Assembly (NCBI GenBank): GCA_016926735.1
Contig: JAFGOA010000066.1
Coordinates: forward strand, 36,675 to 100,674
Direction of reading: 5' to 3'
DNA from: Promethearchaeota archaeon
Lineage (GTDB): Archaea > Asgardarchaeota > Lokiarchaeia > Sigyniarchaeales > SOKP01
DNA: 64,000 nucleotides
Below are positions 16,923 through 59,400 of the stretch, piece by piece. The position numbers and the translations under genes are program-made. Positions within the stretch are counted from its first letter, which is position 1; every line of letters begins with the position of its first letter. The notes beneath the pieces are model-generated. The model did no database searches and was not told the DNA's origin. It saw nothing but the letters and a program-made list of their open reading frames with translations.

Positions 16923-17459
16923 ATGAAAACTCACGAAGAACATAAATTATATGGACCAAAAAAAGTCAATATTGCATTAGTTGTTGTAAGTACAAGTCGA
17001 TTTAAAGAGCTGAAGCTTAATATAGATACAACTGATAAAACTATTCCTTTAGTTAAGAAAATTTTAATGAACAAGAATGATATTATTTTAAAAACAATCA
17101 AAATTATACCCGATTCCAAAGATTATATTTTAAATACTTTAGATTTATTACTTAAAAAGAAAGAAATTAATTCTATAGTTTTTAGTGGTGGTACTGGATT
17201 ATCAAAAAAAGACATTACTTATGATATTATTCAACCAAGATTGGAAAAAGAAATCCTTGGATTTGGGGAGATATTTAGATTTTTATCATACCAAGAAATT
17301 GGCTCTTCATCAGTTTTGTCAAGAGCTACTGCCGGAGTAATATTTAATAAGGTTATTTTTTTATTACCTGGATCTCCAAATGCTGTCAAATTAGCGTTCT
17401 GTAAAATAATAATTCCAGAAATTAAACACATGACTTATATAATTAATAAAAAAGAATGA
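16923..17459 (+). CDS. moaB: Molybdenum cofactor biosynthesis protein MoaB/Mog
   Basis: 178 aa; VVSTSR, SIVFSGGTGLSKKDITYDIIQPRLEKEILGFGEIFRFLSYQEIGSSSVLSRATAGV, LPGSPNAVKLAF. Confidence 0.92.
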   Translation: MKTHEEHKLYGPKKVNIALVVVSTSRFKELKLNIDTTDKTIPLVKKILMNKNDIILKTIKIIPDSKDYILNTLDLLLKKKEINSIVFSGGTGLSKKDITYDIIQPRLEKEILGFGEIFRFLSYQEIGSSSVLSRATAGVIFNKVIFLLPGSPNAVKLAFCKIIIPEIKHMTYIINKKE

Positions 17460-17465
17460 GATTAT

Positions 17466-18713
17466 ATGAATAGATTACATCAAATAGGATTTTCAAAATT
17501 ATCTTCAGTTGAAGATTCACTAAAAAAAATATTTTCTGTAATTGGATTAACATCTATAATTCAAATTAATACTAAAGATGCTTTAAATCATAATGTAGCT
17601 AATAATATTAAAAGTATTGCTGATGTTCCTTATTTTGATAGATCTGCTATGGACGGATATGCTATAAAGGCAGAAGATACATTTGGAGCTTCTATAAATT
17701 CACCTAAATATTTTAAAAAAATTGGAAAGATAGAAATAGATGAACTATCAAAAATTACAATAAATTCCTTTGAAACAGTAAAAATATCTACAGGTGCTCA
17801 AATTCCTGATGGGGCCAATGCCGTGATAAAAATTGAGGAAACTGAAATAAAAGGAAATACCATTAAAATCTATAACTCCATAGTTCCTAATGCAAACATT
17901 TCTAAACGTGGAAGTGATACAAAAAAAGGAGAAATCATCATTGAAAATGGTATTCAAATAAAACCAGAACATATAGCATTATTATGTTCTCAAGGTATTC
18001 AAAAAATTAACGTAAGAAAAAAACCAAATATAAGTATTTTCTCCACAGGAAATGAATTAATAGATATAGAAAATACACGTGAAGGTCGACAAATATATGA
18101 TTCTAATACGCCTATGATCTCAAACTTAGTTAGAATTTATGGTGGGATAGTAATTGAAGAAAAAATTATTAGAGATAATAAGGATTTAATAAAAAAAGAA
18201 TTATTAGATGCCTTAAACAAATCAGATATAATTATCTTTTCTGGTGGTACATCAGTAGGAACCAGAGATTATCTTCCAGAAATAATGAATCAAATAGCAA
18301 AAGTATTAATACATGGTGTTGCTATGAGACCAGGAGCGCCAATTTTAATTGCAACCAAAAATAATAAGTTAATTTTTTGTTTACCCGGTACTCCAGTTGC
18401 TTCTTATATCGGATTTTTGATATTTGTAGGACCATCTATAAAAAAAAAAATGAATTCAAATATATTGGATCCAAGAGAAAAATGTGTTGCCATAATTAAT
18501 CAAGATGTTCCTGTTTCTTCTATGGGATATATACATAATTTAAGAGTTAAACTAGAGTTCATTAAAAATTCTCTAGTTGCTATTCCAATCAGATTAAAAG
18601 GATCAAGCCTAATAAGTTCTTTAACAAATTCCGATGGAATTGTTGAAATATTACCCTTTCAAGAGGGAATAAAAAAAGGAGATAATGTAATTGTAAAATT
18701 ACATCCAAAATGA
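17466..18713 (+). CDS. moeA: Molybdopterin molybdenumtransferase MoeA (second copy)
   Basis: 415 aa; DRSAMDGYAIKAED, STGAQIPDGANAVIKIEE, STGNELI, FSGGTSVGTRDY, HGVAMRPGAPILIA, LPGTPVASYIGF. Confidence 0.92.
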   Translation: MNRLHQIGFSKLSSVEDSLKKIFSVIGLTSIIQINTKDALNHNVANNIKSIADVPYFDRSAMDGYAIKAEDTFGASINSPKYFKKIGKIEIDELSKITINSFETVKISTGAQIPDGANAVIKIEETEIKGNTIKIYNSIVPNANISKRGSDTKKGEIIIENGIQIKPEHIALLCSQGIQKINVRKKPNISIFSTGNELIDIENTREGRQIYDSNTPMISNLVRIYGGIVIEEKIIRDNKDLIKKELLDALNKSDIIIFSGGTSVGTRDYLPEIMNQIAKVLIHGVAMRPGAPILIATKNNKLIFCLPGTPVASYIGFLIFVGPSIKKKMNSNILDPREKCVAIINQDVPVSSMGYIHNLRVKLEFIKNSLVAIPIRLKGSSLISSLTNSDGIVEILPFQEGIKKGDNVIVKLHPK

Positions 18714-27478: not shown

Positions 27479-30400
27479 ATGAACTGGATTTATAACTTAT
27501 TTATGGCAAAATTTAATTTAACAATAAAAAAAAAAATATTCTTTTTTATAATCCTAAATTTAATATTTATAGTTCCAAATCTACCAAATGCTATAGATAA
27601 TATTAATGATAAATCAGTTAATTTCATCGATCCAAATATAGATTCTTCTAATCTAAATAATAGATCGGAACAAGAAATTACTTGGAGCGATGATTATTCT
27701 AAATTAGATAAAAACAAAAATGGCATTAGTGATGATTTAGAAAATAAAATAAATGAAAATCCTCAAATTCAATCTTCTAAAAAACAAATAACCGCATTAG
27801 ATCTTACTAAATTATTAACCACTAATAAAAACACAGAAAATCAAATAGATAAAGATAACATAAGTATTATTGTGAAATTCTCAAAAGCTGAATTTAATGA
27901 TCCTCTTTCTCTTTTTAGAAAATTAGGAGGAAAAATTAAATCTGTATATTCAAAGATAATATATGGCTTTGCAGGGAGTATAGATTATAATAAACTAATC
28001 GAATTTGCTAGATTACTAAAACTTGAAAATTTTGAGTTCTATATCGAAGAAGATGGAAAAGGAGAATCAACATTATATTATACTGGATTAAACATGAATC
28101 TTAGACCTTATGTGTGGAATACATTAGGATATAACGGTGATGAAAATGGTGCTATTGCAATTCTTGATTCTGGATTAGATGATAGTCATAGTATGCTTGA
28201 AGGATATTCTTCTGGTAATTTTAATAATAAGATTGTTGGATGGCATGATTTTGTAGGTAGTAGTTCTACCCCTTATGATGATAATGGTCATGGGTCTCAT
28301 TGTGGAGGAATAGCTGCTGGAGATGGATCACCTAATTTAGATACGTATGGAAGAACAGTATCCTCAGATGGGATTGCTTTAGAAGGTGGGGGACCTTATG
28401 CGGAGCAAACAGTACAAACAACATTATTAAGATTTAATGTCACAGAACCTGGAACTATAGATGTGGAACTTCAACATGAAGATTCAACTATTTTTGATGA
28501 TTTATATACAAATGCCTATCTTTATTATGAATCAACACAAGTCGACAGTATAATAGCTACAACTAATAAAACATGGTTATCTAATATGTCATATGACGTT
28601 ACAGTTTTAGAATTGGGAAATTATGAGGTAGTAATAGAATTAACTTTAGTTGATGATGATTATTCTGGTGCCGTAGAGGATCCTAATTTTGGATTTAGAG
28701 CTCGAGCTCATTGGCCTTTTAATCCTCCAGACCTTGGAGAAGGAGATCTTTGGAAAGGTGTAGCTTCTGATACACATTTAGTTGGAGGAAAAGTAGCGAA
28801 TTATTATGGTGGAGTATATCAATCCGATGTTGTTGATGCTTTGACTTGGTGTGTTAATAATAAAAATATATTACATATCACTACAATCTCAATTAGTTTA
28901 GGATGGATAACTCCTCAAACAAGCATAATTGATGCATGTAATTGGGCGGTAGAAAATGGAATTGTTGTTGTTGTAGCAGCAGGAAATGAAGGTACAGGTG
29001 GATATGGATTAACAAGTCCAGGCGATGCTGATAAAGTGATTACTGTAGCAGCAAATAATGTTTATGATCAAATTACGGAGTATAGTGGAGAAGGAGAATT
29101 ATCATACACAGGTGCTACATATAAACCGGATATAACTGCTCCAGGAGGTAGTACCTATGCGCTTCAAATATTTTCTACTGATTCAGATGATAATGATGCT
29201 GAAGGAATCTTTTCTGATTGGTATGAGGATGATTTAGCAGGAATGCAAGGTACATCAATGGCAACTCCCGCAGTAGCAGGCGCATCTAATCTCTTAATTG
29301 AAGCAATGGGTGGATATAATAATTGGAATTATACAGAACAAGAAGCATTAAAGGTAAAGAGTTTGCTTTTAATGACAGCTACAGAAACTGCACCTTTATT
29401 AAGAGAAAATTCACTCATTGGCGACTCTCCTACTCTAAATAGAGGAAATAAAGACATTCATGAAGGATATGGGAGAATAAATATAGATATGGCAATCGAA
29501 GCATATACCCAATCATTAGATTTCAAAACCGAAAAGAATTTTACAATAGCAAGTAGTGATATTAATCCATTTAATAAGCACGGATTTGCCTGCAATGCAT
29601 ATTTACTTAGTGGGGTAAATTATACATTAGAATTGAACGTTCCATCGGGTTGTGATTTCGATTTATATATTTATGATGATAATCCAACAGCCATTGGTGA
29701 TCCAATAATAGAACAAAAAAGTATAAGTAGTACTATCGGAGGAAATGAATCTATATCATTTATTCCTTCTGAGACAGGTCTTTATTATATAGTAGTAAAA
29801 GCAGTCTCAGGTCAAGGTGAAGCTTATCTTTCATTTAAGCAATATGCTCATGACATTGCTGTATCTATCTCAGCTCCATCAACAGCTCTTCTAGCAGATA
29901 AATTTGAAATAATACTTGCTATAGAAAATATTGGTACCTCAGATGAAACAGATGTTAGTTTTGTAGCTTTTGTTAATAATGAAATTTTAGATTCTCGTAC
30001 ATTTTCATCCTTTTCTAGTGGTCAGATATATCAAATATCTTTTAGATGGTCTCCTTCAGAAAGCGATCAGTATAATTTAACAACTATATCGAATAACGTA
30101 ACAGGTGAAATAAACTTGGGTAACAACATTAAGATTCATTTAGTTAATATTTCAAGTTCAGCAATAAATAATTATGAAATGCAAGTAGATTATCCATATT
30201 CTTGGATTGATACATCTGGAGGTACAGAATTAAATTTGGGAGATGATGATGCGGATACAGTTCTATTACCATTCCTTTTTCCCTTTTATAATATGACTTT
30301 TACTGAAGTATATGTAAGTTCTAATGGTTATCTTAGTTTTTTTGATTCCTATCCAATCAATCAATATGAGGATGATTTTCCATCTGGAGATCTGGATAAT

Positions 30401-31096
30401 TGGTTTCTTATAGCTCCATTTTGGACAGATTTAGATCCTACAGAATCTGGAGCTGGTCCTATTACATTTGATTATACTAGTGATTATTTAGCTATCACAT
30501 GGAATAATATATATACATGGGGATCCTATTCAGGATCACTTATAGGTACTTTTCAAGTGGTTCTTTATCGCTATGGAGATATTATTTTCAATTATGATTA
30601 TATACAAAATACACATATTAGTCATAGTTGTGGTCTAAATTTTGGAGTAGATACTCGTTTTTTCAATGATTATAATAATCATGTATCAAGAAATGACTTC
30701 TCTATTAGATTTACAAATGATACAATGCCGCCAACTTGGTTATCACAACCAGGCGAAATAACAGCATATTATGGACAAGATTTCATATACCATTTGTTAG
30801 CATTAGATTCAGGAGGAATTAGAAATTATTGGATTAGTGATTTAGAGAACTTTGATATTGATGAGAATGGGAGACTTACTAATTATACCTTTTTACCATT
30901 AGATGCTTCTTACCCTTTAGAAATTAGAGCATATGATTATAGCGATCATTACAGTTCTTTATATATTACAATTAATATTAGGGAAGCTCCTTCCAATGCT
31001 AGTATTCCAGGATACCAAATTGCATTTTTAATAGCAATAATCGGATTTTCAATCATTTTAATAAGTATTTACAAACGTAAAAAAATAAAAATTTGA
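27479..31096 (+). CDS. Secreted/anchored subtilisin-like (S8) serine protease
   Basis: 1205 aa; IAILDSGLDDSHS (Asp), DDNGHGSHCGGIAAG (His), VVVAAGNEG, MQGTSMATPAVAGASNLL (Ser); pre-peptidase-like and nidogen-like beta modules; C-terminal TM. Confidence 0.93.
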   Translation: MNWIYNLFMAKFNLTIKKKIFFFIILNLIFIVPNLPNAIDNINDKSVNFIDPNIDSSNLNNRSEQEITWSDDYSKLDKNKNGISDDLENKINENPQIQSSKKQITALDLTKLLTTNKNTENQIDKDNISIIVKFSKAEFNDPLSLFRKLGGKIKSVYSKIIYGFAGSIDYNKLIEFARLLKLENFEFYIEEDGKGESTLYYTGLNMNLRPYVWNTLGYNGDENGAIAILDSGLDDSHSMLEGYSSGNFNNKIVGWHDFVGSSSTPYDDNGHGSHCGGIAAGDGSPNLDTYGRTVSSDGIALEGGGPYAEQTVQTTLLRFNVTEPGTIDVELQHEDSTIFDDLYTNAYLYYESTQVDSIIATTNKTWLSNMSYDVTVLELGNYEVVIELTLVDDDYSGAVEDPNFGFRARAHWPFNPPDLGEGDLWKGVASDTHLVGGKVANYYGGVYQSDVVDALTWCVNNKNILHITTISISLGWITPQTSIIDACNWAVENGIVVVVAAGNEGTGGYGLTSPGDADKVITVAANNVYDQITEYSGEGELSYTGATYKPDITAPGGSTYALQIFSTDSDDNDAEGIFSDWYEDDLAGMQGTSMATPAVAGASNLLIEAMGGYNNWNYTEQEALKVKSLLLMTATETAPLLRENSLIGDSPTLNRGNKDIHEGYGRINIDMAIEAYTQSLDFKTEKNFTIASSDINPFNKHGFACNAYLLSGVNYTLELNVPSGCDFDLYIYDDNPTAIGDPIIEQKSISSTIGGNESISFIPSETGLYYIVVKAVSGQGEAYLSFKQYAHDIAVSISAPSTALLADKFEIILAIENIGTSDETDVSFVAFVNNEILDSRTFSSFSSGQIYQISFRWSPSESDQYNLTTISNNVTGEINLGNNIKIHLVNISSSAINNYEMQVDYPYSWIDTSGGTELNLGDDDADTVLLPFLFPFYNMTFTEVYVSSNGYLSFFDSYPINQYEDDFPSGDLDNWFLIAPFWTDLDPTESGAGPITFDYTSDYLAITWNNIYTWGSYSGSLIGTFQVVLYRYGDIIFNYDYIQNTHISHSCGLNFGVDTRFFNDYNNHVSRNDFSIRFTNDTMPPTWLSQPGEITAYYGQDFIYHLLALDSGGIRNYWISDLENFDIDENGRLTNYTFLPLDASYPLEIRAYDYSDHYSSLYITINIREAPSNASIPGYQIAFLIAIIGFSIILISIYKRKKIKI

Positions 31097-32736: not shown

Positions 32737-35700
32737 TTGTTTAAATACAAAAATAAATTTAAAATAAAAAAAAATTTTCAAATTGGTTTTACGCTGCTTT
32801 TCATAGTACTAATGGCAGAATATGCAAATGCTGCTAATACAACATTAAACCCTACAATTGAAAAATTTTATACTGAGGATAACATAGCAGATGTAGGAGA
32901 ATTAATAGAATTTACATGGGAAATATCTGATTATTCAGATAGTTTATCAATTCGTATTCTTTTTGGAGATGGTAATTATACATTATTAACAGCTCCAGGT
33001 TGGAGTAGTTCATATAGTTATCGATATAGCACAGAAGGAAGATATAATGCAACAATGATAATAATGGCACCTGATCTATATATTTGGAAGTCAGTAACTG
33101 ATCCAAATGGAAATGATCTTCTCATAGAAATTATAAATGTTGCACCTGAATTTGAATCAAATGATATTTCATTTAGCTGGGAATCTGAAAATGGGCCATA
33201 TGAAGATGAGGAAATTCAAGTTTCTGTTGATCTCTCAGATTCCATTGTAGATTTGGAGGAAGGTAAAATTACATATATCTATGATTTTGGAGATGGAGAG
33301 CAAATAATATCAAATCAAAGTTCAACATTACATATATGGAATACAACTGGTAATTATCCAATTTCTATTACGGCTAAAGATGACCAAGGAGCATTAACTC
33401 AGCGAACTCGATTTTTAAAAATTAAAAATAAAGATCCTGAACCAAAATTTACTCTAGGAGCAGGAATTCCAGCAACTTATTCATTTACAGAAGATATCAT
33501 CGGGGATATTCCATTTGGATGGAATCTATCAGATACAGAATATAGTAAATATGCATTTGAGATTATTGAGGAGAAAAACTCTCATGGAAAAGTCTTAAGC
33601 GTTATGAGTAATGAAACAATTTCGACTTCTAAGAACTATATTTATAATGATATTGGATTTCAAAATTATGGGACTGTAGAATTTCAATTTATTATAGAAA
33701 ATAGCCAATCAATAGTATCAAGTTATTTTGGATTTTCTAATGACGATAAGGAAATATTTGCAATTTTTGTTGAAAATGGAAATTGGAGATATTGTACTGA
33801 TGGAAATAGAGATAATACAGCTCTCCTAGGTACCTTACCTGCACCAAAAGATAATATATGGTATCATGTAAGAGTTGATTTTCACATTATTTCCTCTCAA
33901 ATACCATCTGATAGTAGTTGTTATGGTTTAGCAGTTAATGAGTTCAGAGTTAGTATCGATGGAAGTATTTTTGCCAAAAAAAGGTTCGATCCTGTAGATA
34001 ATCCTCTCTCATCTGTAAGAATAGGTACTTTTGAAGGATTATCAAAAAAAACATATATAGATTCAATAGGATATAGTTGGGATAAGAACTATAATATTGG
34101 TGATAACTTCAATGTATATACCCCAGAATACTATGGAACTTATGATTGGAGAGAAGGTTCAATCGGATCAAGTCCAAATGGATGGGAAGTATATAATGAC
34201 GACATTCCTTCCAAATTCGAGAATAATCCTTTTTATACTGAAAACTTTATTGATGAAAATGATAGATGGAGATTAACTGGAATAGAAGAGACATCAATGC
34301 ATATTAGAACTAGTGTATCTGATGATGCTTATGTAAATAATTTGGCTAAAAATACTAATTATGGAACTCAAGCAACTCTAAATTTGGATACTAAAACATC
34401 TACACATACTATGACTGTTTGTTATAGATATATATCTAATGCTGATCATCCTGCAATATTAGACATAGAAATCCCAAATCTTCCAATTATTTCAGCTACA
34501 ATGGATCTTAGAGCTTATTGTGATGCTCAAGATCAATCAGGCGTAACAATAAGAGCAATCTATTTTGATATAGATGGTAGAGGAGCTGGTGCAATTGGTT
34601 GTTGGACAAGGGAAGCTGGTCAAGTGAGAGGAGATGGAGTAATAGGAGTAGGAGCAGAAAAATCCTGGACTTATGATATGACTCATTGTAGATTTCCTGT
34701 AGCAGTTAGTGAACTACCTTCAATCCCAAACACAGATCCTGAAACAGGGAGTAGATATGTTAATTTTATACCACAATCTTCAAGTGATACTAGTGGATTT
34801 TTTAGTCCTGGAGCTCATACAATTAAAGCATTCGTGACTTCTAGAGATCAATATGCAGGATCTAGTCAAGATTCTTGGGTGAGCATTACGCTTAATTTAG
34901 TATATAATGATGAGAATACCCAAGTATATATAAAAAACAATATACCCTACTTATCTTCAAATATAACAGATAATTCAAAGTTGGATATTTATGTCTCTCA
35001 AGGGACATCAAATAGTAAAGTAAAATTATATTCAACTAGCGATTTTTCAGAAAACACTATTACATGGAATAATAGACCATCGAGAAGTTATATATCAACA
35101 TACACTATTTCAGGAACAGGTTGGCATACATTTAACTTAGGAAAAAGTCAAAATAATTTCTATTATAGCTTAAGTCAAGAGATTAACAAAGGGTCTAGTA
35201 ATATAAGATTTTATTCTTCAGAATATAGTGATAGTTCGAAAAGACCAGTTGTTCACCATTATTTATCTAAATATTATCAAGGAGATGGAACATTATATTG
35301 TCAGACAGATCAAAGTGAAATACTTACGCTTACATCTCCAAATAATCTGAATAGATTCTTAAGAAAAGGAGATAAAATAGAAATATCTTTTAAAACAACA
35401 TCAGCTAAAGCAATTCAATTCAATTTAATCGATACAGTTGGATTAGAAAATTCTTTTGAAATTTCAAGTGAAGGGAATTCAAATTTTAATATAAGAACTA
35501 TTTCTTTAGTAGTTCAAGATAATATTTATATTGATTATATGGAGTTTGCTGGATTATTTAATTCAGAAACTTATTTACTTATTAATTCAATTAAATTTTT
35601 TGAAGGAATTAGATCTGATATTTCCTATATTGATATTGGAAATGACTTTGGAAAAGTAATACAACTTAGAGACAGAAGTACTCAAAATCAATTAAGGATG

Positions 35701-38700
35701 GATAATATTTTTAATTCTCAAAATGAAGGAACTATCGAATTTTGGATGCACACAAATAATATTTTAAATGAAATTTGGTCAATATCTGTCTATACGGGAA
35801 CAACCATGATTTTTAAGCTATCTACCAAAAATAATCAATGGGTATATTCTTCGAATGGCGGGGAATATATTCCAATTAGTGATTTTGGTATAGCAGAAGA
35901 AAATCAATGGTATCATCTTAAAATTGATTTTAATAACAATACGAGTCAATTCAATTTAACTTTGGATGACATCTATATGACTTCGATTGAGGGAATCATT
36001 TTTAAAGAATTTAATAAAATTAGATTTGGAACGGTACAAGCAAATGAGGGAACAACATATATTGATGCTATAGGATATAGTTGGGATGATAATTATAATA
36101 TCGGAGATAATAATATTTCATTAGTATTATATCCTGAAAAAACGAAAATCCAATTCTCTGCGGCAGATTCGATAGATACAATTAGCGATTATGATACATT
36201 AAAATATTACTGGGATTTTGGTGATGGTACTTCTGGTTATGGAAAAAATGTTATACATGATTATTTAACATCTGGAAATTATATAATAACACTTGTATGT
36301 AAAGATGATAATGGTGCAACTAGTTCATTTTCTCAAATAATAAAAGTGTATAATACATATCCAGAAATCTCTTTTGTAGACAATTTAGAAACAATAGCAA
36401 TAAATGAAGGAGATACAGTATTCTTTAATGCTGAAAGTTGGGATGAAATTACTGACTATGCAAGTCTCAATTATTATTGGGCATTTGAATCAATAAATAA
36501 TAATATTTTTGATTTTGAAGATAGTATTGAGGGAGGATGGCGTCAATCTCATATGTATCAGGATGATTATTATGGTGATGTTGGTGTTTTAGTAGAGGAT
36601 ACAGAAGGAGATTATAATTATGATTTCAGCAGAATTCTTGTTAGAAATGTTGATCCTCTCATAAGTATTTATGACGCAATTATGATTGCAAATATTTCAT
36701 TTGAAGTTGTTAGAAGTAATCCAACTATAGATGCAAATATAACATTTGAATTACTTGCAGATAGCTTATTTGCATTTAGTAAATACCTAGATTTTCATGG
36801 ATTAGATGATCTAAGTGTTGTAAGTGATAAAGAGTTAGCTATTATGTCCTTATCAAAGGATTGGAAAGTGAATGTTTACTCTACAGAAATTTTACCTGCT
36901 TATTCTTGGTTCAGATATAATATATATATTGAATATCTAGACGGAACTAATACTACAATCACCTCTGGTAAAATATATGGTAATAGTAATGGAGAATGGT
37001 CATTGAACCTTAATCCATATTGGGTTAATTCTATTGATAATACTTTTAGTCATCCTATCACTTTTAATGCAGAAATATTTGATCCCAGTGTTGATGATAT
37101 TTTTGTAAACATTAAATATGATGTTGATATGCTTGTAGAAATCAGTTGCTCTGATAATATTCCATTAGATGGAACTTTTATTATTAATCAGGAGTTAGGA
37201 GATGTAACATATATCATAGAAGTCTATCAAGTTGATGGTGGAACATATGCGAAAATTCATGCTACACAAAATATATACGAGAAATCTTTTTATGATAATG
37301 AATTTCCAACTCAATTGGAATTTGAGTTTAATATTTTTCCAATTATTAACCTTGAAATTCTTTTAAATGAACAATTAGGATTAGAAAATCTTGAAATTTT
37401 AGATTTTCTTAACACATTAAATACTGTAACTGGGAATGTCGTTGATGATGATGGGGGTTCAAATAACCATATAATCACATTTCCATCCATTTTCGATTTT
37501 AGTAACTTATCACCTTCAATGGATATAGCAATACCAAATAATAATACGATCAATGAAGAAGTTAGTTTTTTAGTAGTCATAGAAGATTTTAATCAAATAG
37601 ATTCTGAAATTAATTTTGACTATCAAGAAGTTGTTGAAGATGATGTTCCAAATGTACCTAATGATTTTGAAATTATTAATGGTACTATCTCTGATTCCAA
37701 TGGTGAATTAGAATTTAATGATGATAATTATATTACTATTGACTCAGAATTTCATATAATTGAAAATCAAGTGTTTTATGATGATTTCAATGATACAATG
37801 AGAGACTTAAATTGGATTGATGAAACAAACTTCGATCGAATTAAAGAAGATGATGGTGTACTAAAATTGAAAGCATCTAGCTTTAGTTTATGGCAAAATT
37901 TTTCAAGATGGTTCTTATCATGGGCCCCATATAGTAAAATTTCACTTTCAAAATTCAATACAGAATGGTGGGAAATACAAGTTGATATCAGTAAACAATG
38001 TTATAGCAAGATAGGTAATCATCATTATGGTCTTATGCTTTTTCAAGATGAAGAAAATGTATGGTTATTCGGAGCTACAAATGATGGAAAAATAAAAATA
38101 ACAAAGATAATTGATAGAGAAGCTATTGATGTTGTAAATCTACAATCAAATGATACAACCTTAAGGATAAGTAAAGTTGAAGGAAAGTACTATTTTGAGT
38201 CAAGTATAGATAAAGAAAATTGGAATATACTATTTAGCATTAATTCTTTAGAGATAAATGCTACAGACACAGGTATATTCCATAGAGTGACTTTTCCATA
38301 TGATATTGACTGTTGTTGTTATCATCATCATTATCGAAATAAATGGTGTGATTATAAACATTGCTGTAAATCATGGAAAAATGGGAATAGTAAACATTAT
38401 TGTAAATCATGGAAAGCTTGGGATAATAAATACTGTTGCAAATCATGGAAAAGTTGGAATTATAAACATTACTGTAAATCATTTAAACATTATTGGCATA
38501 AAAATTGTCATTGCTGTTCTTATAGAGATTGGGTCTTTTTCGATAATTTCTCTATGATAGAAAAATATTCGACTGATCATCTCTTAAATTTCACAACAAC
38601 ATTGGATCTTGATACAATTGGAAATGAACAAATATTAGAACATCTATATTTAATCGCAGACTATAAAACAACTTTAAATCAATTAATTGATATAAGTATT

Positions 38701-41700
38701 TATAATTTTCAAAAAAATATATGGGAAATAATTGATTCTAGCTATATTAATACAGATTATCATCATCTTAATTATACAATACAAAGTTTAGGATATTTAG
38801 ATCTTAATAATCAAATTCATGTCAGATTTGAAGCAAGAAGTAGTGATAATGAATTTCAATTATTATTGGATAAACTTCAATTAGAATATAGCAGTTCAAT
38901 GATATCTAATTATCAGTCAGAACAAATACCATTTATAGGAGTAGATGTTGCCAATATTGATGATAATGACATCTCCATAATTGCGAATAAAGGAAGTTTA
39001 GAACACGAAGGAGATTTAAGCCTTCAAGATAATAATTATGCTACTTATTCTTCTTCGGGCGATATTGCTAACTTAGCATTTATCACAGCATTTGCCTTAG
39101 ATCAAGCACAAATCGACGATGGATTTACCTCTATTACATTATCTTATAGTTTCAGAACAAATATTTATCAATTAGTAAATGTTACTGTCTATAATTATAC
39201 TTCTCAAGAATGGATACTGATCAATAGACTAAATCAAAATGAATTTAATGAATTAATATTTGAATTTGATACATCTCAAACAGAATTTTTTAATTTAAAT
39301 GAGATTTATGTGAAATTCGAAGCAATAAACAATACTAATTCATTTACATTTGATTTAGATCTTTTAAGAATTGATTATTCATATTTCCCACATCATCTAA
39401 TTAGTGATAATATAAGAAATTCTGAATTTAATTTACCAAAAGAAAATAGAGATTATGCAGTCTATAATTCTCAAGATAATGATTTAGAATTTAATATCCT
39501 TATGTCAGATATGAATTCTTTGAGAAAATTCAATCTTGGAGTATTATATTATTCCATTCAATCAAGTATTAGTCAAGAGATGAATCTATATTTATATAAT
39601 TTCTCGGGTAAAACTTGGAATATGGTTGACACATTTATAGCATATAATTCTAATTTCATATCAAATGAATATCTTATAAATACATCCGATTATCTAAGTC
39701 CTAATAATTACATTAGAGTTAAATTCGAAGGAACTATTCAAAATGAATATAATCTATTTATAGAGGAACTTGGAATTATCTATAAATGGTCAGATGTATG
39801 GGGACAATATGGAAGTAAATCGAACAGAGATGATTTTAATTCACTTGGATATATTTCTAATGAATATAGTTTTATTTATTGGGGTAATACCAATTTCTAT
39901 ATGAATGGAGAATATCTCATAATAATAACTGCTGATGATGGATATAATATTATACGTAAAGGCGGAGTTATTAATATAATTAATATGCCACCTTATGCAG
40001 AGATTGGACCTATTGAAACAGGTATTAAAGAAAATGAAGAAATTCAATTAACATCTGAATTATTCTTCTATGGTAAATATGCTGAAGAAACAAGATTTGA
40101 ATGGTCTTTTGGTGATGGACTTTATGCTTATGAACAAAATCCAACTCATTATTGGAGTACTGCTGGTACTTACACGATACAATTAACGATTAAAGATTGT
40201 TTTGGTAATATCTATACCGATAATGCAACTATTACTATTGAAGAACACCCTCCAGAAATACTTGGACCTTATACATTTTATGGAAAACAAGGTCAAGCAA
40301 TTGTCTTGGATGTTGAAATATACGACTCTTTTTATGATGAAATGAATTTACAATATGAGTGGTACAGTGTCCCAAGTAATGAAATAAATATTGGAACACT
40401 CTTTTCAACAGATAAAAAGCCAGTTGTATTTTTAGATTGGGGTAATTATACATATTCACTAAAAGTTATAGATCAATCTGGATATTATGCAATTACAAAT
40501 ATAACAATTGAAGTTGATGATATTCCTCCAGTTGTTAGCATTGGATCATATATGTATCATGGTGGAAAGGGAAATTCAATTAGTATTAAAGCATATGTAT
40601 ATGATTCCTATTTAGAAAATGAATTCAAATTTACTTGGACAATTCAAAATGATTTAGAACAACTTAATCAGAGTAATATTATTTTCTATGATAAAATTGG
40701 ACAGATAGCTTTCACATGTAAAGATACTATCGTTTACGATGGAGAAATAAAAATAACAGATAGTTTTGGATTATTTATGATTCAGGATTTTTATATAAAC
40801 TCCTTTATAGATACTAATGGAAATGGTTTTTCAGATGAAATTGAAGAACAATTAGCAGAGACAGGTCATACTATTTGGGATGCTGAAGATACTGACAATG
40901 ATGGATATAGCGATATAATTGAAGAATATATCACTTTTACATTACCAAATAATCCTGATTGTGATGGTGATGGATTATCAGATGGAACTAATAGCACTAC
41001 AGGATTTGGAGAACTAACTTTTGGAACAGATCCATGGAATCCCGATAGTGATGGAGATTTACTTGAAGATGGTTTTGAAGTTTTTGGATGGAATATTACT
41101 GTTAATTCTCTTGATGTATTTGTTTCTTCTAATCCTGTATTAAAAGATACTGACAATGATGGAATTGGGGATTATGATGAATATATAATGAAATTAGATC
41201 CGAGAAGCTCTGATACAGATGGTGATGGGATTGATGATTTGGCAGATCCATATCCTATTACTTATGATTATGATGAGGATGGACTTAGTGATTATGAGGA
41301 ATTACAGATTGGAACTCAATTAAATAACACAGATACAGATGGAGATACTCTTACCGATGGTGAAGAAGTATTAGGTTGGTATTTTAAAACCAATCCTTTA
41401 TCACAGGATAGTGATCATGATTTTCTATCAGATAATAATGAAATAAATTGTTATACAACTAATTCAAAATATTATCGTAATCAAACCTATATAGGTTCAG
41501 AAAGAGTAAAATTAGAGCAATCAATCTATTTGCCTTTTAAGGAAAAGATAGAAAAAGCATTATATGCTAAGATTTCATTTACAATAGCTTTTGGAGAATA
41601 TGGAAATTCTGGAAATCTCGAATATGGAACAGAAAATATTCCAAATATCAGGATTCAAATTACGAAAAACAATATAATCTTATATGATAGGTATTCAAAT

Positions 41701-44664
41701 AATTCTAGGTATGTTTCTGATACAATTGATATAAAAGATCATATCGAAAATTCTATTAATACAGAATATTATGGAAATTATATTATTTCTGTAGATAAAA
41801 CAGATTCAAATTGTATGCTTGAAAACTTTCAATTTGATATTGCTCGATATTTAGATCCTAATAATGATGATTTTGACAACGATGGAATTTTAGACGGAGT
41901 TGAAACTAGTTTAATTGTTAAAGGCGAAAAAGTCTTAGATTTTAAGAACTCTTACCCAGATGAATTAATAATCACTAATTCGACAGAAGATAACTATTAT
42001 AATGAAATTTCCTTAGAAATTCCTTCAATTGGTAGAGTTAATGATGCAGAATTATATTTTAAAATTAATTCAAAGAATATCCTTTATGATCAAGGGTCCA
42101 TTTCTGTTGAACTGATAAAAGAAGAATTAAATAATCTTATCGAAGATCCAGTTTTAATTTCTTATTCTGAGGAATTACCATACCAATCTATATTTCAATA
42201 TATGATGACCTTTGATCTAGGGGATCTTTTGAATAGTGGAGTAATCTCAGAATATTATGGAAAATATAATCTTAGAGTATTAATAGAAAGCGATACTGAG
42301 ATAGATGAATTTATTATCAGTGACTTTTATATAATAACAAATAGTTGGATTCAAGCTGGATTAAATGATTGGAGCGCATGGATTACAGATCCTGCTAAAT
42401 GGAGTACGGATAAAGATAGTCTTTCAGATAAATATGAGATAGATATGGGATATAATCCTCAATCTGAAGATACAGATGGAGATGGTATTTGGGATCACAA
42501 AGATGTAGATCCACTTCATAATCTTATTGTTGAAGTTGATTTCATCAATGCAGAAGGTGGTTCTCATCTTGAAGCTGGTGTGAAAATGAGAAATCAAGGT
42601 AAGGATTTAACAATTTGGACACCATATACAATATATAGTACCACCTTAGATCGTCAATATTATATTGATATTGATGATAGTAGAAGTTCTATTGATCTTA
42701 GTTTTTATCTTTATAATATGCATCATATTGATATTAGAGAAGAAGTTAGGCATAGAGAAGAAAAAGCTAAAAATCCTCTTGCAAAACTATTTTGGTGGGT
42801 TGTTAAATGGATAGTTAAAATTATTTCATATGTAGTACCCGTAAGATATGAAATGCCTGACACAAAATTAGGACAATGGTCGAAAAATTATAATTTAGGA
42901 GATACTAATACATATAATTTAAAGAACGGAGATAAAAAACTTAACGTTAAAGTATCGACAATAGCACTATCAAGGACGAATACTATTGCTGTATATGATA
43001 AGAACTCAAGTTTTAATGGACATTATAAAAATCAAGAAAAAATGAATGTTTTTCATTTACATGTTGATGATGATACTATCAGTTCTAAATCTCCATTTGT
43101 AAATGGAATCAATACTGTTATAATACCAACAAGAATTTTTTCAGAGACAAAATTAAATGCATTGATTCAGAATGAAAAATTAGAGGGAACTCCATTAGAA
43201 GGATGTGAATTTTCAAGTGTAGAAAGAGATGATTCTGGAGAAAGTAAAATGGCATCTGAAAATATTGATTTTGTTATTATACAAAAAAATCTATCCGCTG
43301 AAGATGCTGAAATGATTTTAAATTGGCTTCTAGAAGTGCTTATTAATGAAACTACAGATGAAACAGCATTCCTTAATAGTTTTATATCAACAAAATTAAA
43401 TAATATTGAAATAGAGCAAATGAATGTTAATATTGATATATTAAAAATCACACCATCATTAGGAACATTTGAAAACAGTCCGGAGGGAGAAAAACCTATT
43501 GGAGATTGGGGTACGGCAATCCTTAAAACACTACAGAATTATATATCAATGATCATATCCCTAGCCCAATCAATTATCGAATTAATTGAATTTATAGTTG
43601 ATGCAATTGTAAACTCAATATTAATGGCAGTATTATCGTTTTTAGGTGATTTAATTTGGTTACTTATCCGTGCAGCAATCTTAATATTAGTATGGATCTT
43701 ATTTGTTTTTACATTAATAGGTTTTGGAATTACATTTTTAGCAATGATCCCATTCATGTTAATAATTAGTGGTATAATTGGAGCAGAATTAATCATCAAG
43801 GCAAATTCTTTAAAATTGATTAAAGAAGATACGAATATAGAATTATCTTACAATATTATCTTTGATTATATTGATTTCTTTGATATTTATATTCCCACGT
43901 TAAAAATTTCTGTTACTTTTAATGATTTAATTTATGAAGCAAAAATAAATTTCTTCTCAACCTTTAATCCAAAAATGCCAATGGAGTTTATTCCTGATGA
44001 TTATAATAAACCTGATAGTGCCAATACATTAAATACACTTATTGTTCAAAATAATTTGGAAAATACAGAGAAAATAAAAACATCTTCAGATTCGTTAAAT
44101 CTTTTTTCAGCTTTAGCTTATACTGGATTTTTTGCAGCAATGTCAATGATAGGAGCTGTGATGAGTATTCATGCAGCTATAACGAATGGTTTAAGTAAAA
44201 CCAAACATTGGGAACTTTTAGCATTTGGTATCACTATTACTGCATTTGTAACTTCAATTGGTTTGTTAATATGTACGTTAATGGCAACTACAGATCGTTT
44301 TTCAAGTTTTGTTTGGGGATTAGCATGGGGATTTTTATTATCATTTTTTGAGATCGTTTTTATATTTGGATTAGGAGGAGCTGCAAATATACCTAAAGCA
44401 GTAGGTATATTTGGTACTGTTGTAGCAGCAATTAACATTATTGCTAACATTAGTTTATTCCTTGGGTTTGATATAATGGCTATTCCTGCCACGATTATAG
44501 ATATTATGGCTGTAGCACTTGGTTGTTTCTCAATATTAGCAGTCAATGATAAAGAAGCTAAAGATAGACTACAATTAACATATATTTCATTATCTCTATG
44601 TCTACACTTATTGCTATTTTTAGCCTTTGCTTTTATATTGGTAGTTGAAGAAAGTCAAGAATAA
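32737..44664 (+). CDS. Giant (3975 aa) cell-surface protein: PKD-like, LamG-like, DNRLRE-like and TSP3-like repeats, with multi-TM C-terminus
   Basis: Uninterrupted 11.9-kb ORF; signal peptide (FTLLFIVLMAEYANA); PKD motifs YYWDFGDGTSGYGKNVIHDY and FEWSFGDGLYAYEQNPTHYWSTAGTYTI; repeated D-x-D-x-D-G motifs; several hydrophobic segments near the C-terminus. Confidence 0.93.
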   Translation: MFKYKNKFKIKKNFQIGFTLLFIVLMAEYANAANTTLNPTIEKFYTEDNIADVGELIEFTWEISDYSDSLSIRILFGDGNYTLLTAPGWSSSYSYRYSTEGRYNATMIIMAPDLYIWKSVTDPNGNDLLIEIINVAPEFESNDISFSWESENGPYEDEEIQVSVDLSDSIVDLEEGKITYIYDFGDGEQIISNQSSTLHIWNTTGNYPISITAKDDQGALTQRTRFLKIKNKDPEPKFTLGAGIPATYSFTEDIIGDIPFGWNLSDTEYSKYAFEIIEEKNSHGKVLSVMSNETISTSKNYIYNDIGFQNYGTVEFQFIIENSQSIVSSYFGFSNDDKEIFAIFVENGNWRYCTDGNRDNTALLGTLPAPKDNIWYHVRVDFHIISSQIPSDSSCYGLAVNEFRVSIDGSIFAKKRFDPVDNPLSSVRIGTFEGLSKKTYIDSIGYSWDKNYNIGDNFNVYTPEYYGTYDWREGSIGSSPNGWEVYNDDIPSKFENNPFYTENFIDENDRWRLTGIEETSMHIRTSVSDDAYVNNLAKNTNYGTQATLNLDTKTSTHTMTVCYRYISNADHPAILDIEIPNLPIISATMDLRAYCDAQDQSGVTIRAIYFDIDGRGAGAIGCWTREAGQVRGDGVIGVGAEKSWTYDMTHCRFPVAVSELPSIPNTDPETGSRYVNFIPQSSSDTSGFFSPGAHTIKAFVTSRDQYAGSSQDSWVSITLNLVYNDENTQVYIKNNIPYLSSNITDNSKLDIYVSQGTSNSKVKLYSTSDFSENTITWNNRPSRSYISTYTISGTGWHTFNLGKSQNNFYYSLSQEINKGSSNIRFYSSEYSDSSKRPVVHHYLSKYYQGDGTLYCQTDQSEILTLTSPNNLNRFLRKGDKIEISFKTTSAKAIQFNLIDTVGLENSFEISSEGNSNFNIRTISLVVQDNIYIDYMEFAGLFNSETYLLINSIKFFEGIRSDISYIDIGNDFGKVIQLRDRSTQNQLRMDNIFNSQNEGTIEFWMHTNNILNEIWSISVYTGTTMIFKLSTKNNQWVYSSNGGEYIPISDFGIAEENQWYHLKIDFNNNTSQFNLTLDDIYMTSIEGIIFKEFNKIRFGTVQANEGTTYIDAIGYSWDDNYNIGDNNISLVLYPEKTKIQFSAADSIDTISDYDTLKYYWDFGDGTSGYGKNVIHDYLTSGNYIITLVCKDDNGATSSFSQIIKVYNTYPEISFVDNLETIAINEGDTVFFNAESWDEITDYASLNYYWAFESINNNIFDFEDSIEGGWRQSHMYQDDYYGDVGVLVEDTEGDYNYDFSRILVRNVDPLISIYDAIMIANISFEVVRSNPTIDANITFELLADSLFAFSKYLDFHGLDDLSVVSDKELAIMSLSKDWKVNVYSTEILPAYSWFRYNIYIEYLDGTNTTITSGKIYGNSNGEWSLNLNPYWVNSIDNTFSHPITFNAEIFDPSVDDIFVNIKYDVDMLVEISCSDNIPLDGTFIINQELGDVTYIIEVYQVDGGTYAKIHATQNIYEKSFYDNEFPTQLEFEFNIFPIINLEILLNEQLGLENLEILDFLNTLNTVTGNVVDDDGGSNNHIITFPSIFDFSNLSPSMDIAIPNNNTINEEVSFLVVIEDFNQIDSEINFDYQEVVEDDVPNVPNDFEIINGTISDSNGELEFNDDNYITIDSEFHIIENQVFYDDFNDTMRDLNWIDETNFDRIKEDDGVLKLKASSFSLWQNFSRWFLSWAPYSKISLSKFNTEWWEIQVDISKQCYSKIGNHHYGLMLFQDEENVWLFGATNDGKIKITKIIDREAIDVVNLQSNDTTLRISKVEGKYYFESSIDKENWNILFSINSLEINATDTGIFHRVTFPYDIDCCCYHHHYRNKWCDYKHCCKSWKNGNSKHYCKSWKAWDNKYCCKSWKSWNYKHYCKSFKHYWHKNCHCCSYRDWVFFDNFSMIEKYSTDHLLNFTTTLDLDTIGNEQILEHLYLIADYKTTLNQLIDISIYNFQKNIWEIIDSSYINTDYHHLNYTIQSLGYLDLNNQIHVRFEARSSDNEFQLLLDKLQLEYSSSMISNYQSEQIPFIGVDVANIDDNDISIIANKGSLEHEGDLSLQDNNYATYSSSGDIANLAFITAFALDQAQIDDGFTSITLSYSFRTNIYQLVNVTVYNYTSQEWILINRLNQNEFNELIFEFDTSQTEFFNLNEIYVKFEAINNTNSFTFDLDLLRIDYSYFPHHLISDNIRNSEFNLPKENRDYAVYNSQDNDLEFNILMSDMNSLRKFNLGVLYYSIQSSISQEMNLYLYNFSGKTWNMVDTFIAYNSNFISNEYLINTSDYLSPNNYIRVKFEGTIQNEYNLFIEELGIIYKWSDVWGQYGSKSNRDDFNSLGYISNEYSFIYWGNTNFYMNGEYLIIITADDGYNIIRKGGVINIINMPPYAEIGPIETGIKENEEIQLTSELFFYGKYAEETRFEWSFGDGLYAYEQNPTHYWSTAGTYTIQLTIKDCFGNIYTDNATITIEEHPPEILGPYTFYGKQGQAIVLDVEIYDSFYDEMNLQYEWYSVPSNEINIGTLFSTDKKPVVFLDWGNYTYSLKVIDQSGYYAITNITIEVDDIPPVVSIGSYMYHGGKGNSISIKAYVYDSYLENEFKFTWTIQNDLEQLNQSNIIFYDKIGQIAFTCKDTIVYDGEIKITDSFGLFMIQDFYINSFIDTNGNGFSDEIEEQLAETGHTIWDAEDTDNDGYSDIIEEYITFTLPNNPDCDGDGLSDGTNSTTGFGELTFGTDPWNPDSDGDLLEDGFEVFGWNITVNSLDVFVSSNPVLKDTDNDGIGDYDEYIMKLDPRSSDTDGDGIDDLADPYPITYDYDEDGLSDYEELQIGTQLNNTDTDGDTLTDGEEVLGWYFKTNPLSQDSDHDFLSDNNEINCYTTNSKYYRNQTYIGSERVKLEQSIYLPFKEKIEKALYAKISFTIAFGEYGNSGNLEYGTENIPNIRIQITKNNIILYDRYSNNSRYVSDTIDIKDHIENSINTEYYGNYIISVDKTDSNCMLENFQFDIARYLDPNNDDFDNDGILDGVETSLIVKGEKVLDFKNSYPDELIITNSTEDNYYNEISLEIPSIGRVNDAELYFKINSKNILYDQGSISVELIKEELNNLIEDPVLISYSEELPYQSIFQYMMTFDLGDLLNSGVISEYYGKYNLRVLIESDTEIDEFIISDFYIITNSWIQAGLNDWSAWITDPAKWSTDKDSLSDKYEIDMGYNPQSEDTDGDGIWDHKDVDPLHNLIVEVDFINAEGGSHLEAGVKMRNQGKDLTIWTPYTIYSTTLDRQYYIDIDDSRSSIDLSFYLYNMHHIDIREEVRHREEKAKNPLAKLFWWVVKWIVKIISYVVPVRYEMPDTKLGQWSKNYNLGDTNTYNLKNGDKKLNVKVSTIALSRTNTIAVYDKNSSFNGHYKNQEKMNVFHLHVDDDTISSKSPFVNGINTVIIPTRIFSETKLNALIQNEKLEGTPLEGCEFSSVERDDSGESKMASENIDFVIIQKNLSAEDAEMILNWLLEVLINETTDETAFLNSFISTKLNNIEIEQMNVNIDILKITPSLGTFENSPEGEKPIGDWGTAILKTLQNYISMIISLAQSIIELIEFIVDAIVNSILMAVLSFLGDLIWLLIRAAILILVWILFVFTLIGFGITFLAMIPFMLIISGIIGAELIIKANSLKLIKEDTNIELSYNIIFDYIDFFDIYIPTLKISVTFNDLIYEAKINFFSTFNPKMPMEFIPDDYNKPDSANTLNTLIVQNNLENTEKIKTSSDSLNLFSALAYTGFFAAMSMIGAVMSIHAAITNGLSKTKHWELLAFGITITAFVTSIGLLICTLMATTDRFSSFVWGLAWGFLLSFFEIVFIFGLGGAANIPKAVGIFGTVVAAINIIANISLFLGFDIMAIPATIIDIMAVALGCFSILAVNDKEAKDRLQLTYISLSLCLHLLLFLAFAFILVVEESQE
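38356..38499 (+). repeat. Four tandem 36-nt units encoding K(H/Y)(Y/C)CKS(W/F)K.... inside the giant ORF
   Basis: KHCCKSWKNGNS / KHYCKSWKAWDN / KYCCKSWKSWNY / KHYCKSFKHYWH at exact 36-nt spacing (38356, 38392, 38428, 38464). Confidence 0.92.
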
Positions 44665-56415: not shown

Positions 56416-59400
56416 ATGATTAAAATGAAGAAAGAAACTTTAAATGAAATTAATCTAAAACGTTTAGAAGAGAGTAATAAAGGTCCATTTTGGAGAAATA
56501 ATCCTGAGATTCAGAATTTCCCATTAGTTCATTATAAAAGACCAATAAAGAGAGTAGAATGGAAAAAGAAGAATATTGCAGGAAATATGGATAGTGAAAC
56601 TAAATCTCAGTATAATACTACATCTTCTATAACAATAAATCTTGTTAGTGAAATTAAACAATCATGCCTATTATTTCGCAGAAAGGTAAGTATTTCCAAC
56701 ATTAGACAAAAATATGACTCATTCAAATCAAAACTACATTCTTCGATAGGTAAAGTAATAGAATCAGATAAGATAACAAAATGGAGTGCTGGGATATCTC
56801 TTTTTGCTCCTCTAATTTTTATGATTTTCTATATATTATCTTGCGGATATAGTCTCCCATCTCAAATGATTCATAATTTCTCTTGGTTTGCTTTAGTTAA
56901 TATTTTCTTTCTCACATACATATATCTTTATAATTATAATAGGATATTACATTTTAGATATAAACTTTTTATATTACTATCGTACGTTATAGAAATTTCC
57001 TTTAGTTTTCAGATCATTTTTAATCATTCAATTATTATTTGGTCTGTATTTACGCCTCTTATATTAACACTTCACTTTTTTCTGTCAAGAAATCAGGAAA
57101 AAAGTAATTTTCAAAAATTGAGAAATAGCATTGTAAATTTCTATTTGGGTTTTGTAATACTGGGGTTATTCATATTTAGCTCCGGAATAACAATTCTTTA
57201 TAATTATACTGGAGCAATAAATAAGAACTTATCTCTCTATTTTCTTGCATTTGAGTATGTTATTATAATAATTTATCTTACACAACGATGTTTAAATGTT
57301 CAAAGAAAGCGAATTGTTATAATATTTATAGTATTTATTCTAAGTTTTCTTTCTTTAAGCATTTATTCATTATTTCTTATTGGAAAAGAATCTACTTCTT
57401 TCTTTATTTTTCCTGTATTGATTATTCTAAGCGAAATATTATATAGAAATAAATCTAAATTAGATATTTATTTTACAAAATTAGAAAAGAGTTTTTCGTT
57501 CTTATATACGATAAGAAAGAATGACTTTATGCTATATTCTAATCTTACTTTGTTTAGCATTACAATTATTCTATTTTTTACTTATCCACCATTTGTAATC
57601 ATTCCAATCCTTCTAATGATAATTCCTTCAATAGTCTTTTCAATAAAAAGTAAGTCCCGTCTAAAAAGGAATGTTAAAATCGCAAAACGAACTTCCAATA
57701 AAGTTGTTAAAGCTTTAGGATTACCTGAACAAAAACTAAATAAGCAATTATTTCAAGAACGTCTTGAAGGGAAAAACCAAGTAGCAGCAGTATTGGTTTT
57801 AATATTCTTAATTATCTTACCTATTTTGTTCACTTTGCAGTCAATTATTACTATTGACTCTCCATTAATCGAATCTTCAAGAATCAATAGATCACAACGA
57901 ATTAATTCTGATAAAATTGATTATAATAATTTAGATTTTGGAAATATTGATGAAATGGATAGTCTTTCCATAAATGATATGTTTGTGACCAGATGTATCT
58001 CCTCAATAAGTTTAACAGAATCAGCTCAAATGTTTTATAGATTCTATCCTCAAGACGATGTGCATCACGTAGAAGGCATGTTAAAAAGAAATTTTTATGA
58101 TTTTCTGAGTGGATATCTCATAGGTCCTCAAAAAGATAGTTATATTTATACAGACATTAAGTTGGATCAGCAAAATCTATTGCCTGGAACATATAAAGTT
58201 CAGGCAATATATAGTGTTCTTAATTGGTTTAATACCCATAGAAGCCAACCAGTTGAATTTATGGTGACTTTAGAAAAAGATGATCTTTCAGTGAAGGGTA
58301 ATAATCCCTATAATTTCGAAGTAGATTATGGAGCAGTATATACAATTGATTATAATGACCATTGGTCAGTTATATATAATGGTAAAGTTTTAAATTCAGC
58401 AGGAAAACCTTTTACAAATAAAAATATTACATTATATCTTGAAAAGAATAATAGATATCAAGAACTTACGACTCTTCTTACAGATGAAAACGGGAATTTC
58501 TATCATGAAGAACAAGTATATGGTTCATTTGAAATTAATGCTCTTGCTAAAATAGAGTATGAAGGAGATGGGCTTTATAACAAACTAGTTTACAATGAAT
58601 ATGCTGGTCTTGAAACTTCTGTTGAAGGAGATCGCTTCTTTATTGATGAAAATAAAGATGGTATTCCTGAATGGCCTTTTACTCTTTATGATTTAATAAA
58701 TGCACTTCAAGATTCAGGAGAAAATCCGCAAGTAGAACCAATTTTAAAATTTGAAATTGGAAAGATCACCCTTGACAAATCAATAGATAAAGGATTGATT
58801 TTTGATGTTATTTTTGACAATGAATATGTAGATCCTGTTGTAATTGCATATATCCAAACTCGAAATGGCGCTCAAAGTGTACAAGTACGTGTTACAGATA
58901 TAACTTCTACAAGTTGTTCCATATTTATGGAAGAAAATGATAATGAAAATCATAATTCTGAAGATATTGGGTATCTGATTATGGAAAGAGGATCTTGGGA
59001 ATTACCCGATGGAACAAAAGTAGAAGCTGGAAAGATAATTACAGATAATACACATATCCATGAAACACCATTCGGTGGTGTAAAGGTTGATTTTACTCAA
59101 AATTTTGCATCAACACCAATAGTGCTTCACACATTGGACACATATAATAATTTAGATTTTACCCATTCAATCATTCATGATGTTAATTCTTCTTCTTTTA
59201 TGATTCAACAGGAAACGGGAAAATCACCTATTACAACTACAGAAGAAACAATTGGATGGATTGCAATTGATGCAAATGTTAATGGGTATATAGAAGGTAT
59301 CAAATATGAAACAGGTCTTATTAATGATAATATCGCAGATGGTATTGATGAGTCAGAACAGATAATTACCTATTCACACTCTTTTTCAGAAATTCCTATT

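What the first reader, a model, noticed from the sequence alone, without database searches (positions are those of the whole stretch)
38311..38532. Cys/His/Trp-rich tract of 12-aa repeats inside a giant surface protein
DCCCYHHHYRNKWCDYKHCCKSWKNGNSKHYCKSWKAWDNKYCCKSWKSWNYKHYCKSFKHYWHKNCHCCSYRDW has 13 Cys and 9 His in ~75 residues, while the rest of the 3975-aa protein is almost Cys-free. It is built from four exact 36-nt units and sits just before what looks like the last strand (WVFFDNFSMIE) of a LamG/DUF1349-like domain. It could be a disulfide-rich knob, a metal-binding array or a redox or electron-conducting patch on the cell surface.
Basis: partly seen in the sequence, partly recalled or inferred. 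Interest (0 to 1): 0.85.

Follow-up and report, generated by a model that had tools for sequence, protein, structure and literature searches.

The report
Cysteine-tryptophan-lysine repeat loop in lokiarchaeal surface protein
A giant cell-surface protein of a Lokiarchaeon (a relative of the ancestors of complex cells) carries, inside a lectin-like domain, a repeated loop packed with cysteine, histidine, tryptophan and lysine that a sister species also carries and re-copies, probably as a metal-binding or sticky patch on the outside of the cell.

Summary
At 38311-38532 the 3975-aa ORF has 13 of its 32 Cys and 9 His in 74 residues. The repeats have an exact 36-nt period but are not exact copies (58-81% nucleotide identity). 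The window is from a Lokiarchaeota MAG.

The syntenic same-genus ortholog (64% identical overall) has the same 12-aa unit at the same point, in about five copies. A same-family ortholog has a shorter, non-repetitive Cys/Trp/Tyr insert there. A paralog in the same genome has the domain with only a short loop. So the tract is an inserted loop before the last strand of a DUF1349/GH43_C2-like (concanavalin-type) domain, under protein-level constraint and re-amplified within each species. Pfam and PDB sequences give no match to the tract; in 228 Asgard genomes the repeat motif forms an array only in these two genes.

The disulfide-knob reading is weakened: DsbA, DsbB and VKOR were not found in the host or its sister. 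A c-type haem wire is not supported (no CXXCH; no CcsA-type assembly protein). I favour a reduced, basic (+13 on a -335 protein), flexible loop that binds soft metals or metal-sulfide surfaces and helps adhesion; this function is inferred. Cys/Trp-rich inserts also occur in two other giants of the family, in a different domain.

The parts
32737..44664 (+). Giant surface protein ORF, 3975 aa (TTG start as listed; frame open from 32668, so the exact start is uncertain)
   Evidence: ortholog G001 64% identical over 3993 columns and syntenic
32737..32832 (+). Signal-peptide-like N-terminus (residues 1-32, ...IGFTLLFIVLMAEYANA)
   Evidence: read from the sequence; the ortholog has the same features
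34858..35232 (+). CBM96 / DNRLRE domain
   Evidence: Pfam PF24517 E 1e-12, above cut-off; NF033679
36136..36339 (+). One of several PKD domains
   Evidence: PF18911/PF00801
37774..38307 (+). DUF1349/GH43_C2-like (concanavalin-type) domain, part before the insert
   Evidence: paralog PF17851 E 8e-4 and PF07081 E 9e-4, below curated cut-offs; weak PF07081 match in the window gene itself, E 0.14; Foldseek best hits are DUF1349 proteins and GH43 C-terminal domains, low-confidence model
38311..38532 (+). Cys/His/Trp/Tyr/Lys-rich insert, residues 1859-1932, net charge about +13
38353..38388 (+). Repeat unit 1, YKHCCKSWKNGN
38389..38424 (+). Repeat unit 2, SKHYCKSWKAWD
38425..38460 (+). Repeat unit 3, NKYCCKSWKSWN
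38461..38496 (+). Repeat unit 4 (degenerate end), YKHYCKSFKHYW
38533..38571 (+). Last strand of the host domain, VFFDNFSMIEKYS (FDNF invariant in all three orthologs and the paralog)
40882..41457 (+). TSP3-type calcium-binding-like repeats (DxDxDG motifs)
   Evidence: PF18884 weak, below cut-off; NF033765/NF047639 partial
43543..44646 (+). Cluster of about 10 hydrophobic C-terminal segments, probable membrane anchor
   Evidence: Kyte-Doolittle scan, same in the ortholog

Best explanation
The tract is a tandemly amplified loop inserted before the last strand of a concanavalin-type (DUF1349/GH43_C2-like) domain of a giant, membrane-anchored adhesin-like protein of Lokiarchaeia. Shown: it is coding, orthologous between species, constrained at protein level, homogenised within each species, and absent from a paralog with an intact domain. 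Inferred: it lies outside the cell, is largely disordered on its own, and its cysteines stay mostly reduced because the cell is probably anaerobic and lacks known disulfide-forming enzymes. Inferred mechanism: each 12-residue unit K-H-(C/Y)-(C/Y)-K-S-(W/Y)-K-x-W offers at least one thiolate and usually an imidazole for soft metal ions or metal-sulfide surfaces. The flanking Lys and Trp/Tyr add cation-pi and electrostatic stickiness, unusual on an otherwise strongly acidic protein. Copy-number change by unequal recombination tunes its length, so the loop works as a metal-dependent or mineral-contacting sticky patch next to a carbohydrate-binding-type fold.
For: Ortholog with the same 12-aa unit at the same site in an independent MAG. 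K2, K6, S7, K9 invariant and at least one Cys at position 4 or 5 in all 9 units of two species; His in 7 of 9 at position 3; in-register identity 22/36 against 0-6/36 out of register; between-species differences by codon position 59/69/116. Domain dN 0.22 and unit dN about 0.31-0.36 with saturated dS. Within-species units more alike than between (72% and 85% against 66% nt), with Ser codon TCA fixed in one species and TCT in the other. No VKOR, DsbB or DsbA found in G000 or G001, with the controls ringing. Paralog lacks the tract but keeps the domain. Tract pLDDT about 22-33 in both models. Net charge +13 against -335 for the rest. Other members of the giant family carry different Cys/Trp-rich inserts in a different domain.
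Against: No metal site was shown. There are no CXXC knuckles apart from one CHCC, and metallothioneins normally avoid aromatics (general knowledge). The position 4/5 residues swap between Cys, Tyr and Asp. The more distant ortholog's insert has no His and no net charge, so only Cys and aromatics are conserved at that depth. Cys counts become even (14, 10, 8) if the other Cys of the domain are included, which pairing would also give. Failure to find known oxidases in a MAG does not rule out other or spontaneous oxidation. The structure models are poor.
Confidence: 0.4

Rival explanations
1. Disulfide-rich knob: the cysteines pair to staple the loop into a rigid protrusion used for adhesion.
For: Even Cys totals (14, 10, 8) when all Cys of the domain are counted (alignments); a fixed Cys every 12 residues suggests a ladder; Cys conserved at the insert's 3' end in all three orthologs.
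Against: No VKOR in 39 genomes, no DsbB in 26, and no DsbA in G000 or G001; conserved Cys elsewhere in the ectodomain lie mostly alone in their domains; adjacent CC/CCC runs and C/Y/D swaps do not suit fixed pairing.
Confidence: 0.2
2. Lys/aromatic sticky loop: the tract works mainly through cation-pi and electrostatic contacts (as Lys-aromatic adhesive peptides do) with acidic polymers, minerals or other cells; Cys only add stickiness or cross-links.
For: Lys at three positions of the unit and Ser at one are the invariant residues, more so than Cys; +13 charge on a protein of -335; host fold and neighbouring CBM96/PKD/TSP3 domains are adhesin-like; Lys-aromatic peptides adhere to mica and other surfaces (PMC7403305).
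Against: The more distant ortholog's insert is Cys/Trp/Tyr-rich but uncharged; does not explain why every unit keeps a Cys.
Confidence: 0.22
3. Tolerated tandem-repeat expansion in a permissive loop, with little function of its own.
For: Tandem arrays expand easily; copy number and sequence differ between species; paralog and most family members lack it.
Against: Purifying selection between species (third-position excess, saturated dS), frame and composition kept across genera, and comparable Cys/Trp inserts in other giants of the family.
Confidence: 0.13
4. Electron-conducting or haem-binding patch at the cell surface.
For: His, Cys, Tyr and Trp can all carry or ligate redox centres (general knowledge).
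Against: No CXXCH anywhere in the protein, no CcsA-type cytochrome c assembly protein in G000 or G001, no match of the tract in PDB sequences or Pfam.
Confidence: 0.03
5. Assembly artefact or frameshift.
For: Single MAG contig; no reads available.
Against: Same motif in the orthologous gene of a separate MAG (59% identity over the domain, different synonymous codons), plus open frame on both sides.
Confidence: 0.02

Closest known systems
DUF1349 (PF07081) and GH43_C2 (PF17851) concanavalin-type domains
   Same: Sequence pattern of strands up to FDNF, weak profile matches, Foldseek best hits 3o12, 3mep and GH43 C-terminal domains.
   Different: All profile scores are below the curated cut-offs; carries a 74-residue repeat insert before the last strand that the paralog lacks.
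PilC minor pilin of Streptococcus sanguinis (ConA-like lectin module grafted on a surface protein)
   Same: Fold-level hit (7oa7, 7oa8) and a modular surface protein with a lectin module that was shown to bind glycans (PMC9934059).
   Different: No homology beyond the fold was tested; PilC's Cys/Trp content was not compared.
Metallothioneins and other Cys/His metal-chelating peptides
   Same: High local Cys+His density without a predicted fold.
   Different: Few CXC/CXXC motifs, very rich in Trp/Tyr/Lys, extracellular, embedded in a beta-domain; no sequence match.
Lys-aromatic wet adhesives (mussel foot proteins and KY/KF peptides)
   Same: Repetitive, basic, aromatic-rich segments; Cys also occurs in some mussel foot proteins (general knowledge).
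   Different: No homology; no DOPA pathway examined; here a loop in a folded domain.
TSP3-containing giant surface proteins of Lokiarchaeia (this protein's own family)
   Same: Shared post-TSP3 and C-terminal regions in 12 of 65 genomes of the family.
   Different: Only three orthologs have the DUF1349-like domain with this insert.

Membership tests
DUF1349 / GH43_C2 concanavalin-type domain | Profile match above the curated cut-off | tested here: not met
   Paralog domain 19.4 bits vs 32.4 (PF07081) and 19.6 vs 22.7 (PF17851); window domain 12.8 bits. Called 'DUF1349-like', not a member.
DUF1349 / GH43_C2 concanavalin-type domain | Beta-sandwich fold similar to solved members | tested here: inconclusive
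   Best PDB hits are DUF1349 and GH43 C-terminal structures (E 7e-5 to 1e-3) but the model has pLDDT 43 and low TM-scores.
Metallothionein-like metal chelator | Abundant CXC/CXXC motifs, few or no aromatics | tested here: not met
   One CXXC in the tract; 8 Trp, 9 Tyr.
Metallothionein-like metal chelator | Binds d10 metal ions | not testable with these tools
   Needs protein.
c-type cytochrome / haem wire | CXXCH haem-attachment motifs | tested here: not met
   None in the protein.
c-type cytochrome / haem wire | Cytochrome c maturation genes in the genome | tested here: not met
   PF01578 absent in G000 and G001; other maturation systems were not searched.
Disulfide-rich extracellular domain | Host has an oxidative folding pathway (DsbA with DsbB or VKOR) | tested here: not met
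   None found in G000 or G001; non-canonical pathways not tested.
Disulfide-rich extracellular domain | Conserved even Cys framework | tested here: inconclusive
   Insert Cys 13/9/6; with other domain Cys 14/10/8; positions shift between species.
Known named repeat family | Match of the tract in Pfam or PDB | tested here: not met
   0 families at E<=10; 0 PDB sequences at E<=10.

The most novel reading that the evidence does not exclude
Lokiarchaeal giant adhesins carry a previously undescribed class of hypervariable, Cys/aromatic-rich loop inserts grafted at strand ends of extracellular beta-domains (here with Lys/His in a 12-aa tandem array, elsewhere Cys/Trp/Pro-rich), acting as reduced metal- or sulfide-dependent contact patches in anaerobic cell-cell or cell-mineral attachment.
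Probability: 0.2. Interest if true: 0.75.

Novelty: new variant of a known kind. Interest (0 to 1): 0.5.

Why it matters
Lokiarchaeia lack a highly ordered S-layer and instead display numerous complex surface proteins thought to enable the cell contacts relevant to eukaryote origins (PMC9834061). What those giant proteins touch is unknown. A dense, conserved, copy-number-variable Cys/His/Lys/Trp patch gives a small, expressible and testable piece of one of them, and could show how such a cell uses reduced thiols on its surface.

Tried and rejected
Exact-repeat claim: rejected. Tract as known domain: no match in Pfam or PDB sequences. Unit elsewhere in Asgard genomes: a degenerate K-x3-K-S-x-K-x-W-x2-K codon pattern over 228 genomes gave hits at about the level of its reversed control except in these two genes; the one lookalike (G040, KRWEKSHKHWEHK) is a single copy near the end of an unrelated, HAD-hydrolase-like protein. 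Viral contigs: none. Weak tract hits in other genomes (E 0.01-1) were mostly short or stop-interrupted frames or unrelated ORFs such as a radical-SAM protein, treated as chance. Alternative frames of the tract: the other five frames add no convincing gene. AF2 models of both orthologs were poor with only three sequences; no metal or disulfide geometry was read from them. Literature searches turned up no description of such tracts in Asgard archaea, in an open-access library only.

Full report
OBSERVATION. The sequence and translation are as described. Residues 1859-1932 of the 3975-aa ORF at 32737-44664 hold 13 of its 32 Cys, 9 of 59 His, 14 Lys, 9 Tyr and 8 Trp. Hypergeometric P for Cys is 3e-15, and 2000 shuffles never exceeded 7 Cys in 75 residues. 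C, H, W, Y and K make 72% of the tract against 14% of the rest; the best 74-residue stretch elsewhere has 21 such residues against 53. The tract is basic (+13) in a protein whose remainder carries about -335. The 'four exact 36-nt units' are not exact: the period is exactly 36 nt over 38353-38496, but unit pairs share 58-81% of bases.

ORIGIN AND GENE. The window lies in a 3.88-Mb MAG (G000, 99% complete, 4.8% contamination). Named relatives found by the domain are Candidatus Lokiarchaeota (JAGXOA010000280.1, DXJM01000368.1). The protein begins with a signal-peptide-like segment, has PKD, CBM96/DNRLRE and TSP3-like parts and ends in about ten hydrophobic segments, so the tract should face outwards. 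This topology is inferred from sequence.

IS IT REAL AND CONSERVED? The same-genus genome G001 (the same sequence as L017, bin106) has a syntenic ortholog, 64% identical over 3993 columns, with flanking genes alike. At the same site it carries five copies of the same 12-aa unit, for example NKHCCKSYKTWE. The same-family G005/L018 ortholog has a 46-aa Cys/Trp/Tyr-rich insert without repeats, ending CCDPYREWAFFDNFSM. A 4461-aa paralog in the same genome has the domain with only a short linker there. So three orthologs carry an insert and the paralog shows that the domain does without it. A profile search of 79 genomes of the order found the domain only in these, and a codon-pattern search of 228 Asgard genomes found the unit as an array only in G000 and G001.

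HOW IT EVOLVES. Aligned in register, all nine units keep K2, K6, S7 and K9; each has at least one Cys at position 4 or 5 (position 5 in all four G000 units, position 4 in all five G001 units), and position 3 is His in seven. Units are more alike within a species (72% and 85% nt) than between (66%), and the Ser7 codon is TCA throughout one species and TCT in the other: the arrays have been homogenised separately (concerted evolution). Between species the differences fall at codon positions 59/69/116, and synonymous divergence is saturated while unit dN is 0.31-0.36 and domain dN 0.22. The protein, not just the DNA, is therefore being kept, though somewhat more loosely than the flanking domain. 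The dS values are too saturated for a precise ratio.

HOST DOMAIN. The paralog's domain matches GH43_C2 (E 8e-4) and DUF1349 (E 9e-4, profile 48-177 of 179), both below the curated cut-offs; the window domain itself matches DUF1349 only weakly and only up to profile position 142, before the insert. Foldseek with the poor AF2 model (mean pLDDT 43) ranks DUF1349 structures, GH43 C-terminal domains and the S. sanguinis PilC lectin first. I call it DUF1349-like. PilC is a useful functional precedent: a ConA-like module on a surface protein that binds glycans (PMC9934059). Both AF2 models leave the tract at very low confidence (block means 22-33); with three sequences this is weak evidence of disorder.

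WHAT IT MIGHT DO. Disulfides: VKOR was found in none of 39 genomes, DsbB in none of 26, and DsbA neither in the host genome nor in its sister, although all three families rang in the control genomes. Eight of the Cys outside the tract are shared by all three orthologs and they are mostly single in their domains, as expected if the ectodomain does not rely on disulfides. Against this, Cys totals of the domain including the tract are even in all three orthologs (14, 10, 8), so pairing is not excluded. Haem: no CXXCH, and no CcsA-type assembly protein in G000 or G001. What remains is a reduced loop with soft-metal ligands, Lys and aromatics. I commit to a metal- or metal-sulfide-dependent contact patch at 0.4; a Lys/aromatic sticky loop without a metal role comes next (0.22). 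The lack of His and charge in the G005 insert suggests that Cys and aromatics are the more widely shared feature.

A WIDER PATTERN. Among related giants of the family, two from G004 carry other Cys/Trp-rich inserts (CYFPCLPCSLECSGPWWDLDCDWECSTCSIPC... and CIPYYSCHWSWSKMRVRCKRKYFC...) in the domain that follows the TSP3 repeats; in most other members no such Cys cluster is seen. The window protein has an amphipathic Trp/Val/Lys insert in its own copy of that domain. Grafting of odd loops into extracellular domains may be a habit of this family; this rests on few cases.

VERDICT. Real, conserved in two genera, not an assembly error, without a known family; the mechanism is not shown.

Noticed in passing
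window 42736-42861 (residues ~3334-3375): Amphipathic Trp/Val/Lys-rich insert (NPLAKLFWWVVKWIVKIISYVVPVRYEM) in the domain after the TSP3 repeats; the G001 ortholog has a different but similar one.
   Followed up: partly
L112 (G004:C34) and L113 (G004:C186): Related giant proteins carry Cys/Trp-rich inserts in the post-TSP3 domain, two paralogs with quite different inserts.
   Followed up: partly
G033:C47: Open reading frame of 14557 codons in a related Lokiarchaeon.
   Followed up: no
window 10224-18713: Apparent molybdate/tungstate ABC transporter next to molybdenum-cofactor genes (MoaA-, MoeA- and MogA-like), judged from sequence only.
   Followed up: no
window 27479-31096: Secreted-looking S8 subtilase with CARDB and NIDO domains, one gene away from the giant protein.
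   Followed up: no
window 56416-63999: Second giant surface-type ORF running off the window, with a Laminin_G_3 match and a sub-threshold H-type lectin match.
   Followed up: no
Lokiarchaeial genomes among G000-G050: No VKOR found in any of 39 genomes and no DsbB in any of 26, while DsbA occurs in a few: how these cells oxidise extracellular thiols, if at all, is open.
   Followed up: partly
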